Assembly: GCA_947588965.1 (NCBI GenBank)
Contig: CANQAN010000005.1
Location: 1 to 64,000 of the forward strand
Direction of reading: 5' to 3'
Source of the DNA: an uncultured Helicobacteraceae bacterium
GTDB lineage: Bacteria > Campylobacterota > Campylobacteria > Campylobacterales > Helicobacteraceae
DNA length: 64,000 bases
Part shown: piece after piece, positions 5,197 through 15,273 of the stretch
Position numbering within the stretch: the stretch's first letter is position 1
Layout of the letters: every line of letters begins with the position of its first letter
Position numbers and translations under genes: made by a program
The notes under the pieces: model-generated
What the model saw: the letters and a program-made list of their open reading frames with translations, nothing else
What the model was told of the DNA's origin: nothing
Databases searched by the model: none

Positions 5197-5997
5197 TTAA
5201 TGCAACACAACTCCTGCTAAGATATAAAAGGGAGCGACATATTTGTTCTCACCGCCTACAAGTACATGTAAAATGTCCTTGTCTTTTCCTTTTTTGAGGC
5301 ATTCTCTCAAATCCAACACTCCAAGCAAAAGCCCACCATCAATGTGCCTTGTCGTTCTGCTATCAAGTCCATCATATAATGCCTGAAGTTCTTGTGCAAG
5401 TTGGTTGGGTCCGTCATCTAATAGTTTCATAATATTTTCATCTTTGTAAAACTTATCATAGTCTTTTGTACGAAAATACATGATTGTATTAAACAAAGCG
5501 AGTTTATGGATTCTAATGCCTTGCTTATTATCGATTTTGTGAAGCTCAAGAACTTGATTGTAAGCCGTATTCACTCTATTAACAGCATCGATTTTCCATC
5601 CATCTTTATTTAAATAACAACCTATATACTTATCTTCTATCCACACTTCAAAGTCTTTATCCTTGCTCATACACCAGAAATCAGTGCTACGTCGCTTTTT
5701 GTTTAAAAAATCATATTCTTCCGTACCTCTGCCAACTTCACTCATGTGATAGGGTGTGAGGGAATGTATGGCTGCAGAAATGCTTGAATAAGCTGTCTTT
5801 TCACCCTCAACAAGTGGAAAGACTCTATCAATTTTATTTTCAAGCATGGTGAGATTAATATCAAAAACGAGTTGGCAAAACTCATCAAAAAACTTCTTAA
5901 ACTTCCTACCTTTTTCTATGCTATGGTCTCTATAATAGGAATCTAAAAGCTCATATTTGTACAAAGAGTTGGAATCCTTAAAGCGTTCAACAGACAT
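5197..5997 (-). CDS. Unknown protein with a PD-(D/E)XK-like motif
   Basis: 266 residues with no family I can name. It is soluble and rich in Lys, Asp and Tyr. Residues 104-123 contain STDFW, then D106, a 14-residue spacing, and E121-D122-K123 after a hydrophobic strand (FEVWI). This is the spacing of a PD-(D/E)XK nuclease core, though many proteins contain such a motif by chance. The C-terminal end is hydrophobic (PFYILAGVVLH). Ribosome-binding site AGGAGG lies just before the ATG. It stands alone between the cupin and the ion channel, in an AT-rich surround, which suggests accessory DNA. Confidence 0.6.
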   Translation of the reverse strand: MSVERFKDSNSLYKYELLDSYYRDHSIEKGRKFKKFFDEFCQLVFDINLTMLENKIDRVFPLVEGEKTAYSSISAAIHSLTPYHMSEVGRGTEEYDFLNKKRRSTDFWCMSKDKDFEVWIEDKYIGCYLNKDGWKIDAVNRVNTAYNQVLELHKIDNKQGIRIHKLALFNTIMYFRTKDYDKFYKDENIMKLLDDGPNQLAQELQALYDGLDSRTTRHIDGGLLLGVLDLRECLKKGKDKDILHVLVGGENKYVAPFYILAGVVLH

Positions 5998-6067: not shown

Positions 6068-6793
6068 TTATTGGACTCTTTCTTTTTCTTTTGGCTCATT
6101 TTTGCGCTCTTTAATTTCGCTGATATTGTCAATAATCAAGCCAATAATGATATTAAGCACCACAAAACTCACGACAATAATAAAGCTAATAAAATATATC
6201 CACGCATAAGGATAAATGCGCATTGTAGGTCGTGCTATGGATTCACTCCAGCCCTCTCCTGTCATAATCTGAAAGAGAGTGAAAAAGCTGCGCCCCAAAT
6301 TCCCAAAGTATTCGGGCATGGCCGCTCCAAAAACGCGCGTCCCAAAAATGGCATAAATATAATAGACAAGCAAGAGTAATCCGCCTATATACAGGACATT
6401 AGGGGCTGTTTTTAAGATAACCATTATGATAAACTTAAGTTGTGGAACAGCAGAAAAAATGCGCACCACCTTAATCACTCTAAACAATCTAAAAATAATA
6501 ATATCTCCACCAAAAGAAAATAGGGTCTCATTGACAAAGGGTATGACCGAAAAGCCAACAATGACAAAGTCAAAGAGATTCCAATGAGATTTGAAAAAAT
6601 CCCTCTGATAAACTGCTATTTTGAGTCCTATTTCAAACACATAAAACCCCAGACAAATTCTATCAAATAGGATAAGAAATGAACGTGGAATGAAGCTATT
6701 ATCAAGGCTTAAAAGCCCTAAAGCAATGGAATTTAAGATAATAACTGCTAAAATGATATTTGAAATGAAAGCAGATTCTAAAAAGCCTTTCAA
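6068..6793 (-). CDS. Single-domain voltage-gated cation channel (NavBac/ion_trans family) with TGEGWSE filter
   Basis: About 241 residues and six membrane segments, the architecture of homotetrameric bacterial Nav/Cav channels. S4 (FRLFRVIKVVRIF) has four positive residues every third position: R102, R105, K108, R111. The pore filter reads T178-G-E-G-W-S-E184 in place of the Na-channel TLESWS. Start: the frame is open to a GTG at 6814, but a ribosome-binding site (AAGGGGG) lies inside that extension, five bases before a TTG at 6793, which I prefer. The C-terminal tail is short and charged. The ion selected is not known; see findings. Confidence 0.85.
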   Translation of the reverse strand: MKGFLESAFISNIILAVIILNSIALGLLSLDNSFIPRSFLILFDRICLGFYVFEIGLKIAVYQRDFFKSHWNLFDFVIVGFSVIPFVNETLFSFGGDIIIFRLFRVIKVVRIFSAVPQLKFIIMVILKTAPNVLYIGGLLLLVYYIYAIFGTRVFGAAMPEYFGNLGRSFFTLFQIMTGEGWSESIARPTMRIYPYAWIYFISFIIVVSFVVLNIIIGLIIDNISEIKERKNEPKEKERVQ

Positions 6794-6814
6794 TATGACC
6801 CCCTTAATACACAC

Positions 6815-10004: not shown

Positions 10005-11726
10005 ATGAAAGCAACAGAAAATGATTTTGCATTTATGCTGCATGAAGCTGTGATTGAAATTCCATTTTTTCAAAGAGCTTATGTGTGGAAAGAAGAGCAA
10101 TGGGAACAACTTTTTGAGGATTTAAAAGAGAGTTTTAAAAATAAAAAAGAGCATTTTTTAGGTTCAATCGTATTAAAACAACTCCAAACAAATGTAGGAG
10201 AGGGGACAAAAAGAAGTTTGATTGATGGACAACAAAGATTGAGTACTTTTTCAATTCTTGTGAAATCCTTGTATGATAAATTAGACGATAATTATAAGGG
10301 ATATTATGCAAATTATTTGTTTCAAATGCCACCGAACAACAACATTCCAAAAATTCAACATTCCAAAATTGATAGAGCCTCCTTTGAAAAAATTTTAAAA
10401 GCAAAAAATTATAAAGAGCTATCAGATTATAATAAGAATGATAAATTAATAGAATGTTATCAATATTTTTCAGAAAAAATAGAGCAATGCGAAGAACTAA
10501 AGGATTTTAAAAGTTTTTTGGATTTTATTTTGCACATAAAACTCTGGGTTACAATCAATCTAGAATCCACAGAAGATGAACAAAAAATCTTTGATTCCAT
10601 TAACACCGCTGGATTAAAGCTTAATGCAACGGATATTATAAAAAATGCTCTTTTTGCAAAAGCGATTGCATTAAAAGCAGATTACGAAGAGCTCTATAAA
10701 AAATATTGGGAAGATGTATTTGAATCAGAAGAAAATAAAAATTTTTGGGAAGAAGAGCTTAATACAGGTCGTTTAAAAAGAACGCAAAGTGAAATTTTCT
10801 TACACGCCTTTGCTATCATAAGAGGGTTTTTTAAACCTGAAGACAGCTTAGAAAATCTTAGCAAAATTTATAAAGAGGAGATTGAAAATTATGACATTAA
10901 AAAAATGGAATCTTTTTTAAAACAAATCAAGGAATATGCTATCATTTATCGCAATTTCCCACAAATCAAACAAGATACTTGCTTGTCTTTTGAAAATGAT
11001 GAAGAAAGATTGTTTCATATCTTAAAAATTACCGATACAAACACCATAATGCCTTTAATTTTAAAATTAAAATACAGCTTTAAGAATGATACCTTAAAAT
11101 CTTGTTTTTTCCTCTTAGAAAGATTTGTTTTACTCTGTTGGCTTTGTCGCAAAGGCACGAAAGATTATAATATATTATTTGCCAAAACAATCAAATGCAT
11201 TGCAGAAAACAAAGATAATCCTGTAGAGCTTTTAAAAGAACAATTATCAGAACGTATTCCAAAAGATGAAGACATAAAAGAATGTTTAGTTTCTCTTAAG
11301 GACAATAGTGCAAATTATAGGGCAAAACTTATTTTATTTTGGATAGAACTTTACAGACGCGATCAAAATAAAGGACAAGATATTATAGAACTTTCTTATC
11401 AATATACTTTAGAACATATCATGCCACGATCTTGGGAGGGTTCTTGGAAAAATATTGCAAAAGACAAAGAACACGCAGAAGACTTAATTTATCAAATCGG
11501 AAATATGACCCTTTTAAAAGGCTCTCTTAATAGCACAATAAAAAACGCTCCTTGGAAAACTAAGCTCAATGGCGATGGGAGTCGTAAAAATAGCATTAAA
11601 ACTTGTGCTGATTTATTGATAACAAGAGAAATTCTTGACAAGAAGAAATGGGATGAAGAGAGTATAAAGGAGCGAACACAGAGATTTATAAAAGATATTT
11701 TTGAAATTTGGGGAGAGAAAATATAA
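10005..11726 (+). CDS. DUF262/DUF1524 protein (GmrSD-like type IV restriction family)
   Basis: 573 residues. The N-terminal DUF262 domain has IPFFQRAYVW (about residues 19-28) and the nucleotide-binding signature IDGQQRLSTFSIL (about 73-85). The C-terminal DUF1524 domain has the His-Me/HNH-type motif YTLEHIMPRSW and a later QIGNMTLL. This N- and C-terminal pairing occurs in GmrSD, which cuts modified phage DNA, and in other defence proteins. It is a single-gene system here. AT-rich codon use and the position next to R-M modules suggest horizontal acquisition. Antiphage function is inferred. Confidence 0.82.
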   Translation: MKATENDFAFMLHEAVIEIPFFQRAYVWKEEQWEQLFEDLKESFKNKKEHFLGSIVLKQLQTNVGEGTKRSLIDGQQRLSTFSILVKSLYDKLDDNYKGYYANYLFQMPPNNNIPKIQHSKIDRASFEKILKAKNYKELSDYNKNDKLIECYQYFSEKIEQCEELKDFKSFLDFILHIKLWVTINLESTEDEQKIFDSINTAGLKLNATDIIKNALFAKAIALKADYEELYKKYWEDVFESEENKNFWEEELNTGRLKRTQSEIFLHAFAIIRGFFKPEDSLENLSKIYKEEIENYDIKKMESFLKQIKEYAIIYRNFPQIKQDTCLSFENDEERLFHILKITDTNTIMPLILKLKYSFKNDTLKSCFFLLERFVLLCWLCRKGTKDYNILFAKTIKCIAENKDNPVELLKEQLSERIPKDEDIKECLVSLKDNSANYRAKLILFWIELYRRDQNKGQDIIELSYQYTLEHIMPRSWEGSWKNIAKDKEHAEDLIYQIGNMTLLKGSLNSTIKNAPWKTKLNGDGSRKNSIKTCADLLITREILDKKKWDEESIKERTQRFIKDIFEIWGEKI

Positions 11727-13329: not shown

Positions 13330-14223
13330 TTATTTTGATTCTGCTACTTCTTTTATAACTTCCCAATTTTCTTTGTATTGTTCTATTTCTTCCAATTTTA
13401 TTTTCGTGCATTTTTCATCATCAAATTTATCTGCAAAACTCATCGGTATAAGATAACAAATGCCCATTTGTTTATCCATAGCCACATAAATATCGCAATC
13501 TTCGCTCGTGATTCTCTTGCCTCGATTTGTTTCATGTTTGTAGTCTATACCCTGTCCTCCTCTGTCTCTATCCCTAAAGCTAATAATTCCACCTTGAGAA
13601 ATCCCTTTAATTTGAATGCGTAAAAGCGTACTATTGTAATCCACTATCGCATCGTAACGACTGCTTCTTACATCAACGCTTGAAGCATTAAATCCAGCTA
13701 AAATAGCTCTTGCTACAAATAAAAATTCCGCACTATCACCAGCATTAGCTGTCATAACTCCTGAATTAATGTGAAGTAAATTTGTTGAAAATCCATCAAT
13801 AGAAGCAAGAAATAAGGCTTTTTCTAAAATTTTGGCAAGTTTAGTCTTTATAAAATTAAATTGCTTATCATTGCTAACTTCCTTAATGTATTCTAAGCTT
13901 TTATCTTTTAGTTCCTGCAAATCTAATTTTTTAAAAATATCTAAAAATATTTGTGCTTCTATAAAATGAACCACATCATTTTTGTATAAGCACTCTTTAT
14001 TTGCAATTTCAGTGATTTCATTTCTTTTATAATCTAATTTTTCAAAATTTTTTAGAATTTTTTCTTTAAATTTCACATCACTACACTTTTCTATAAAACG
14101 TCTCCTTAGATAATCTTTGATTTGCGTATCATTAAATTGTTTGTTTTTAAAACTAGAAGGCTTTTCGTTGAAAGCTTTGATGTTTTTCTTAACAAACTGC
14201 TCTAAATTCATTTCTAAATTCAT
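13330..14223 (-). CDS. Putative type II restriction endonuclease (PD-(D/E)XK type)
   Basis: 297 residues with a helical N-terminal half. The core reads SSRYDAIVDY then LLRIQIKG: D191/D195 with Q204-x-K206, followed by EDCDIYVAMDKQMGICYLIP. This matches the PD-(D/E)XK arrangement with Gln in place of the central acidic residue, as in group I intron-type and related restriction nucleases. It overlaps the 3' end of the C5 methyltransferase gene by 35 bases, the usual organisation of a type II R-M pair. A 12-base tandem duplication at its start supplies two ATGs (residues 1 and 5). Specificity unknown. Confidence 0.75.
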   Translation of the reverse strand: MNLEMNLEQFVKKNIKAFNEKPSSFKNKQFNDTQIKDYLRRRFIEKCSDVKFKEKILKNFEKLDYKRNEITEIANKECLYKNDVVHFIEAQIFLDIFKKLDLQELKDKSLEYIKEVSNDKQFNFIKTKLAKILEKALFLASIDGFSTNLLHINSGVMTANAGDSAEFLFVARAILAGFNASSVDVRSSRYDAIVDYNSTLLRIQIKGISQGGIISFRDRDRGGQGIDYKHETNRGKRITSEDCDIYVAMDKQMGICYLIPMSFADKFDDEKCTKIKLEEIEQYKENWEVIKEVAESK

Positions 14224-15148
14224 TTTTTATAACCCTTTTAATCTCTTTTGCAATATTTGCAATCACACTTACAGAAACGCTGTTACCAATTTGCTTATAA
14301 AGTGTAGCTTTTGAAAGTTCATTTGGTAAAATAAAATCATCGTCAAATCCCTGAAATCTGGCACATTCTCTAGGGGTGAGTTTGCGTATATCATCATCTA
14401 ATACTAAAGGTACATTATGGCCACCCGTTCCCATATTTGCAGTTAAAGTTGGGCATAAATTATTTTTATTTTCTCTCACATAATGCCTCCGCCATTGATA
14501 TAAAGTCTCTTTGTTTCGCATATTCTGTTTAAGTTCATTGTAGTATTTGTGCTTGTTGTAGTAAAAATCTTTTTCGACCCCTTGTTCTAGCAAATGGCTA
14601 ATTTTGTTTGTGAGCTTGATTTTAGCAGGAAAATTAAACATCTCACATTTATTAAAATCTAAAAAACCTACAATATAAATTCTTTCTCTATTTTGAGGAA
14701 TATTGCCATACTCACAAGTATTTAAAATTTGATATTTTATGTTATACCCAGCTTTCTCTAATTCTGTTTTTATAATAGTAAAAGTCCTACCACCATCGTG
14801 CTTGAATAAATTTTTTACATTTTCTAAAAAAATAATTTCTGGCTTAAAATATTCCAAATATCTTAAAATTTCAAAAAAAACATTGCCTCTTTCGTCTTTA
14901 AAACCCTTTCTATATCCAGCCACACTAAAAGCTTGACAAGGGAAACCAGCTGTTAAAATATCAATCTTATTTAATTTACTTAAATCCACTTTTGCCAAAT
15001 CTTCGTTAATGATTTTATGCTTGTGGTTTGCTTTATAAGTTATACACGCCTTTGTATCAATCTCTATCGCCCAAGCTGTTTTAAAGCCAACTTTTTTAAA
15101 GCCTAGCTCTATCCCTCCAATCCCAGCAAACAAACTTCCTATTTTCAA
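14189..15148 (-). CDS. DNA cytosine-5 methyltransferase (type II R-M)
   Basis: About 319 residues with all C5 motifs in order: IGSLFAGIGGIELGF (SAM), AGFPCQAFS (catalytic Cys), LENVKNL, QNRERIYIVGF, then a target-recognition region containing YQWRRHYVRENK and LTANMGTGGHN, and finally KQIGNSVSV. Start: the frame is open to 15241, but a TTG at 15148, eight bases after GAGGAG, places the SAM motif at the N-terminus as in most C5 enzymes. The target sequence cannot be read off. It protects host DNA from the overlapping endonuclease. Confidence 0.9.
   Translation of the reverse strand: MKIGSLFAGIGGIELGFKKVGFKTAWAIEIDTKACITYKANHKHKIINEDLAKVDLSKLNKIDILTAGFPCQAFSVAGYRKGFKDERGNVFFEILRYLEYFKPEIIFLENVKNLFKHDGGRTFTIIKTELEKAGYNIKYQILNTCEYGNIPQNRERIYIVGFLDFNKCEMFNFPAKIKLTNKISHLLEQGVEKDFYYNKHKYYNELKQNMRNKETLYQWRRHYVRENKNNLCPTLTANMGTGGHNVPLVLDDDIRKLTPRECARFQGFDDDFILPNELSKATLYKQIGNSVSVSVIANIAKEIKRVIKNEFRNEFRAVC
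14201..14224 (-). repeat. 12-bp tandem duplication at the methyltransferase/endonuclease junction
   Basis: Two exact copies of AATGAATTTAGA (minus strand). They encode NEFR-NEFR at the end of the methyltransferase and MNLE-MNLE at the start of the endonuclease, keeping both frames. Confidence 0.85.
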
Positions 15149-15273
15149 CCAAAACTCCTCTTTTAAGCACATTATTGTTGCTATTGTATCTAAATAATTA
15201 TTAATTTTAAATACAAGACTAAAATTAAATTCTAAAAGCACAAAGCTATGGTATATTTATCGCCCCTTATTGA

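What the first reader, a model, noticed from the sequence alone, without database searches (positions are those of the whole stretch)
6068..6793. Bacterial voltage-gated channel with a TGEGWSE selectivity filter
Typical bacterial Na channels have TLESWS. Here the filter has Gly at positions 2 and 4 and Glu at 7 (T178 to E184). Pore loops of eukaryotic Ca channels contain TGEDW, TGEAW and TMEGW. As I recall, the native bacterial Ca-selective channel CavMr of Meiothermus has Gly at filter position 4 that is needed for Ca selectivity. The sequence therefore predicts calcium or mixed selectivity in a Helicobacter-type channel with a normal four-charge S4.
Basis: partly seen in the sequence, partly recalled or inferred. 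Interest (0 to 1): 0.6.

Follow-up and report, generated by a model that had tools for sequence, protein, structure and literature searches.

The report
NavAb-type channel with calcium-like filter
A bacterium of the Helicobacter family carries a voltage-gated ion channel of the well-known sodium-channel type whose ion filter has changed to resemble that of calcium channels, and the gene travels with an uncharacterised, nuclease-like neighbour that nobody appears to have linked to such channels.

Summary
In detail: window 6793-6068 (-) encodes an intact 241-aa one-repeat voltage-gated cation channel with filter T178-GEGWS-E184 and an R-R-K-R S4. The cited precedents hold: CavMr is TLEGWVD and its Gly4 sets Ca2+ selectivity; Cav1.2 has TMEGW, TGEDW and TGEAW. 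Ca2+ permeability is a fair guess, but unproven. By phylogeny and pore length this is a NavAb-type channel, not a CavMr relative, and the published CavMr-filter-in-NavAb swap gave no current. Gly2 (NavAb L176G) causes divalent block; position 7 was dispensable in CavMr. My best guess is a divalent-preferring, monovalent-leaky pore; Na+ flux with Ca2+ block is the main rival.

The larger finding is the context. The next gene, 5197-5997 (-), belongs to an undescribed family with invariant E...D...ExK residues (PD-(D/E)xK-like; one member fused to an EVE domain). It adjoins the channel in eight genomes of two families, often with a Cro-type regulator and an IceA2-like or DUF6150 protein. All eight linked channels have altered filters; intact unlinked relatives checked there keep TLESWSM, with one exception. 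A separate actinobacterial group reached TGEGW/TGEAW independently. New variant of a known kind; anti-phage function possible, untested.

The parts
6068..6793 (-). one-repeat (6TM) voltage-gated cation channel, NavAb lineage, 241 aa, TTG start
6242..6262 (-). selectivity filter TGEGWSE (T178-E184)
   Evidence: sequence read directly; aligned to NavAb T175-M181 without gap
6461..6490 (-). S4 gating charges R102, R105, K108, R111
6799..6805 (-). Shine-Dalgarno-like AAGGGGG upstream of the TTG start
   Evidence: sequence read directly
5197..5997 (-). companion gene, 266 aa, undescribed family, 70 bp downstream of the channel on the same strand
   Evidence: homologs adjoin the channel in 7 other genomes; no Pfam, NCBIfam or PADLOC match
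5629..5682 (-). D106 ... E121-x-K123 of the companion, invariant in all 20 members aligned (with E66, E87, Q148): PD-(D/E)xK-like motif
   Evidence: catalytic role inferred

Best explanation
The gene makes a homotetrameric voltage-gated cation channel of the NavAb type (family and fold shown; tetramer and gating inferred from the family). Its filter has been remodelled from TLESWSM: Gly4 replaces Ser at the entrance above the Glu3 ring, Glu7 adds a second carboxylate ring (8 filter charges per tetramer, as in CavMr) and Gly2 opens a cavity at the inner end. The most likely result (inferred) is a pore that lets Ca2+ through in preference to Na+ but leaks monovalent ions. Depolarisation moves the R-R-K-R S4 and opens it, so Ca2+ and current enter the cell. 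The channel is one part of a conserved module: the PD-(D/E)xK-like companion is encoded directly next to it in two bacterial families (adjacency shown; functional coupling inferred). I think the channel is the membrane arm and the companion a nucleic-acid-acting or nucleic-acid-sensing arm of one stress or defence system (weakly supported).
For: Channel identity. NavAb branch: the window protein and its four nearest companion-linked relatives form a clade (100/99) inside the NavAb-type clade of two families (100/99). A NavAb-like protein (L028, 430 bits to NavAb chains) is in the same tree. Gly4 + Glu7 is not a one-off: TLEGWSE occurs in companion-linked channels of two other genera, G074 and G726, in two families. 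Gly4 as Ca2+ determinant: PMC7041947 (NavPp-D4G PCa/PNa 41 against 0.3; CavMr-G4S 12 against 218); beacon rule PMC10120453. Module: companion adjacent in 8 genomes. All 8 linked channels lack TLESWSM; intact unlinked NavAb-type relatives checked in the two families have TLESWSM (G076, G077, G080, G693, G706, G729), except G718. Companion motif; EVE fusion PF01878 2.7e-8, Cro-type HTH, IceA2-like and DUF6150 neighbours.
Against: No current has been recorded. The CavMr filter did not work in NavAb (PMC7041947). Closest relatives keep Gly2 but have Ser4 and even Gly7 (TGESWSG, TGDSWSE), so a Ca2+-type filter is not a fixed trait of the clade. Linkage and filter change give only 1-3 phylogenetically independent pairs, too few for a test. 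The window locus lacks the HTH and small-protein genes seen at most linked loci. The companion's fold is unconfirmed (single-sequence model pLDDT 34).
Confidence: 0.5

Rival explanations
1. The pore is still mainly a Na+ or non-selective cation channel that external Ca2+ blocks, because on the NavAb backbone Gly2 makes a divalent-binding cavity and Gly4 does not act as in CavMr.
For: NavAb L176G shows current reduced by half in 40 mM Ca2+ with an extra inner cavity (PMC10349818); 8HA1, the L176G structure, is the best NavAb match to this pore; relatives with Ser4 (TGESWSG, TGDSWSE) exist; the CavMr filter failed in NavAb (PMC7041947).
Against: Glu7 and Gly4 both point towards higher divalent permeability by published rules; the 8-carboxylate filter differs from L176G.
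Confidence: 0.33
2. The channel is not a working pore: the filter is drifting in a lineage where the gene is on its way out.
For: Only 1 of 19 genomes of the genus and 9 of 121 of the family have it; broken copies exist (G072, G714) and the companion is broken in G082; branches are long.
Against: Open frame, S4 charges, P-helix and pore motifs kept; dN/dS 0.16-0.34; changes confined to positions 2, 3 (Asp once), 4 and 7, with Thr1, an acid at 3, Trp5 and Ser6 kept in the companion-linked channels.
Confidence: 0.1
3. The companion is an unrelated gene that happens to share a mobile or variable site with the channel.
For: The companion also occurs without a channel, next to TM2-domain and lipoprotein genes or alone with the HTH gene; TLESWSM channels in the family also sit near TM2 genes.
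Against: Eight adjacent same-strand pairs in two families, with overlapping or touching reading frames in three genomes and both gene orders.
Confidence: 0.25
4. The gene is a CavMr-type (AnclNav) calcium channel acquired by transfer.
For: Similar filter (TLEGWVD).
Against: Nested among NavAb-type channels of related bacteria (100/99); P2 helix has the NavAb length, one residue longer than the TFEDWTD and actinobacterial TGEGWPD channels; a clade with actinobacterial TGEGW channels is rejected (AU p 0.002 and 4e-5).
Confidence: 0.03

Closest known systems
NavAb (Aliarcobacter butzleri) and other NavAb-like BacNavs
   Same: Fold, gapless pore alignment, Thr1-Glu3-Trp5-Ser6, P2 helix 'IxRP', S4 charges, order of bacteria
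   Different: Filter TGEGWSE against TLESWSM; short C-terminal tail (14 residues after S6 against a median of 43), without the usual coiled coil
CavMr (Meiothermus ruber), native prokaryotic Ca2+ channel, TLEGWVD
   Same: Glu3, Gly4, Trp5 and an acid at position 7; 8 filter charges per tetramer
   Different: Different branch of the family; Leu2 and Val6 in CavMr, Gly2 and Ser6 here
Engineered NavAb L176G (8HA1/8HA2) and NavAb TLEGWSM (9UC3)
   Same: Each carries one of the two glycines of this filter
   Different: Single engineered filter changes with Met7; here Gly2, Gly4 and Glu7 occur together in nature
Human Cav1.2 / Cav3 repeats (TMEGW, TGEDW, TGEAW, TLEGW)
   Same: Filter motifs with Gly2 and Gly4
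   Different: Four different repeats in one chain; here one filter repeated four times
RexAB (phage lambda), DNA-binding sensor plus ion channel
   Same: Two-gene layout: a nucleic-acid-type protein plus a membrane channel, near a Cro/CI-type regulator
   Different: No sequence relation known; RexB is not a voltage-gated channel; no defence activity shown here

Membership tests
BacNav, NavAb-like group | PF00520 one-repeat 6TM channel with S4 charges | tested here: met
BacNav, NavAb-like group | Groups with NavAb-type channels in a tree built without the filter columns | tested here: met
   (nested, with long outgroups, it branched just outside)
BacNav, NavAb-like group | Canonical filter TLESWS | tested here: not met
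   TGEGWSE; so it is a variant, not a canonical member
BacNav, NavAb-like group | Na+ selectivity | not testable with these tools
   needs electrophysiology
AnclNav / CavMr group | Phylogenetic position outside NavAb-like channels | tested here: not met
   TFEDWTD channels used as AnclNav stand-ins, CavMr itself was not available
AnclNav / CavMr group | Gly at position 4 with Glu3 | tested here: met
AnclNav / CavMr group | High PCa/PNa | not testable with these tools
   needs electrophysiology
PD-(D/E)xK nucleases (companion) | Invariant E...D...(E)xK active-site pattern | tested here: met
   E66, E87, D106, E121, K123 invariant in 20 of 20
PD-(D/E)xK nucleases (companion) | Profile or fold match to a known family | tested here: inconclusive
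   no significant Pfam, PADLOC, PHROG or PDB profile match for the companion domain; model pLDDT 34
Known anti-phage systems (PADLOC) | Match of channel or companion to a model | tested here: not met

The most novel reading that the evidence does not exclude
A voltage-gated, Ca2+-permeable channel is the membrane arm of a two-gene (channel plus PD-(D/E)xK-like protein) anti-phage or stress module in Campylobacterales, with its filter remodelled for that role.
Probability: 0.25. Interest if true: 0.82.

Novelty: new variant of a known kind. Interest (0 to 1): 0.56.

Why it matters
If the pore passes Ca2+, it would be a natural NavAb-type calcium channel, a direct test of the 'glycine beacon' rule on the best-studied channel backbone, where an engineered CavMr filter failed. 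Comparing TGEGWSE, TLEGWSE, TGESWSG and TFESWSE from close relatives gives a natural mutational series. The conserved link to a nuclease-like gene would give bacterial voltage-gated channels a biological role, which is still largely unknown.

Tried and rejected
Transfer from Actinobacteria because of the shared TGEGW core: rejected by AU tests. Plasmid or phage carriage of the companion: no match in plasmid or phage records; no viral contig encodes the channel. Empty-site comparison in sister genomes: the flanking hydrolase and cupin genes are not in a conserved order, so no clean empty site. Companion fold: the single-sequence AlphaFold model was unusable, so no fold search was run; profile searches gave nothing. 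A scan of viral contigs with the companion alignment failed for lack of conserved stretches. Fisher test on linkage against filter within the window family (p 0.008) is not relied on, because relatives are not independent. Short C-tail as a mark of companion-linked channels: rejected, an unlinked TLESWSM relative (G080) is equally short. Literature: no paper in the held library mentions TGEGW together with 'channel'.

Full report
What is there. The minus-strand ORF 6793-6068 encodes a 241-residue protein starting at TTG behind a good Shine-Dalgarno sequence. It matches Ion_trans (PF00520) over almost its full length, and is the only such protein in this 1.62-Mb genome. The best solved relatives are NavAb, NavMs and the repeats of human T-type and other calcium channels. 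An AlphaFold model from a shallow alignment (mean pLDDT 71, most pore blocks 81-90) has NavAb as top fold match (E 5e-13).

I checked them. CavMr's filter is TLEGWVD and Gly4 is the main Ca2+ determinant (PMC7041947). Cav1.2 repeats read TMEGWTD, TGEDWNS, TFEGWPE and TGEAWQD in a PDB alignment. A later paper proposes that glycine at this 'beacon' position makes one-domain channels calcium-selective (PMC10120453). Three facts from the same literature restrain the inference: the full CavMr/NavAb filter swap was silent in both directions; Asp7 of CavMr is dispensable while position 6 matters (V6T, PCa/PNa 40 with K+ leak); and glycine at position 2 of NavAb (L176G) produces divalent block (PMC10349818). 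Both single glycines have been made in NavAb and crystallised: L176G (8HA1/2) and TLEGWSM (9UC3; sequence read; the functional result is unknown to me).

Where it sits in the family. The gene is rare: 1 of 19 genomes of the genus, 9 of 121 of the family, 81 of 398 of the order sample, all channel types counted. Filters in these Campylobacterales are TLESWSM (61) or TFEDWTD (30), with a handful of exceptions, all in the window's family in that sample. In trees built without the filter columns, the window protein groups with G082 (TGDSWSE), G067 and G071 (TGESWSG), then with G726 (TLEGWSE), at 98/95 and 100/99, within a clade of NavAb-type channels of two families. One earlier tree with very distant outgroups placed it just outside the NavAb-like channels; removing the long branches nested it. 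Its P2 helix has NavAb length, one residue longer than in the TFEDWTD and actinobacterial channels. So it is a NavAb-type channel with a converged filter, not a CavMr relative; CavMr itself could not be included.

Convergence. An actinobacterial group has TGEGWPD, TGEAWPD, TGEAWPE, TGEAWSD, TGDGWSD or TGDAWSD. It is a separate clade beside an actinobacterial TLESWSM channel; joining it with the Helicobacteraceae glycine-2 channels is rejected (AU p 0.002; the TGEGW sequences alone 4e-5). Gly2 and Gly4 therefore arose more than once.

The neighbour. The gene 70 bp downstream on the same strand, 5997-5197, has homologs directly next to the channel in G082, G067, G071 and G074, and in a second family in G726, G680 and G692. 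In G726 the order is divergent HTH gene, DUF6150-like protein, channel, companion, the same as in G067; G082 and G071 have an IceA2-like protein in the DUF6150 place. In G067 and G071 the two reading frames overlap by 8 bp. In G680 and G692 the companion precedes the channel. The companion family has no Pfam, NCBIfam or PADLOC match for the window member, but E66, E87, D106, E121 and K123 are invariant in all 20 members aligned, the pattern of PD-(D/E)xK nucleases; one member carries an N-terminal EVE domain, a modified-base reader found fused to nuclease domains in modification-dependent restriction enzymes (PMC7897488, abstract). Nuclease activity is inferred, and the fold is unconfirmed. 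The companion also exists without a channel, near TM2-domain and lipoprotein genes. Within the window family it is in 18 of 121 genomes.

Filter and neighbour go together. All eight companion-linked channels have lost TLESWSM: Glu7 in six, Gly4 in three, Gly2 in four. Unlinked intact NavAb-type relatives in the same two families have TLESWSM, except G718, whose filter region (TLDGGSA) is odd and unlinked. The correlation rests on only one to three independent contrasts, so it is a lead, not a result. Absence of the companion was checked within about 5 kb for G076, G077 and G080 and about 1.5 kb for G693, G706 and G729.

Mechanism. Shown: a conserved voltage-gated-type channel with a remodelled filter, adjacent to a conserved gene. 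Inferred from published mutants: increased divalent permeability, probably with monovalent leak. Inferred only from layout: joint action with the companion. RexAB, a DNA-binding sensor plus an ion channel beside a CI-type repressor (PMC12894663), is the nearest known layout; this is a resemblance, not membership. The nearby GmrSD gene (10005-11726) and a C5-methyltransferase with a PD-(D/E)xK nuclease gene (13330-15241) put the window locus near restriction genes, weak support for a defence setting.

Verdict. The calcium reading is reasonable and partly supported, about even odds. The channel is a new variant of a known kind; the unexpected part is the conserved channel-companion module.

Noticed in passing
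L012-L016, L108-L111, L114, L116-L125: Actinobacterial one-repeat channels form a separate clade with calcium-channel-like filters TGEGWPD, TGEAWPD, TGDGWSD, TGDAWSD; the held literature search found no mention of TGEGW channels.
   Followed up: partly
window 5197-5997 and L169-L187, L212-L216: Undescribed PD-(D/E)xK-like family in Campylobacterales, in variable loci with HTH, IceA2-like, DUF6150, TM2-domain and lipoprotein genes; one member fused to an EVE domain.
   Followed up: partly
L145:8416-8712, L147:8773-9069, L204:5187-5594, L205:6863-7156: Small proteins related to H. pylori IceA2 (PF05862, 4e-11 for L147), whose function is unknown, sit next to the channel or companion; this ties IceA2-like proteins to nuclease-like genes.
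   Followed up: partly
window 10005-11726: GmrSD-type protein (PF03235 + PF07510), matching PADLOC HEC-06/Orf5 models, 3.2 kb from the channel.
   Followed up: no
window 13330-15241: C5 cytosine methyltransferase gene overlapping a PD-(D/E)XK_5 nuclease gene: a likely type II restriction-modification pair.
   Followed up: no
L223:1483-2217: Channel of G718 with filter TLDGGSA lacking the near-universal Trp, next to small zinc-ribbon repeat proteins.
   Followed up: no
L017, L018: Alphaproteobacterial channels (MAGs) with filter TLDGWAH, another natural Gly4 case.
   Followed up: no
L010/L011 (G072), L224 (G714), L182 (G082): Broken copies: frameshifted channels in G072 and G714, and an interrupted companion beside the intact channel of G082.
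   Followed up: no
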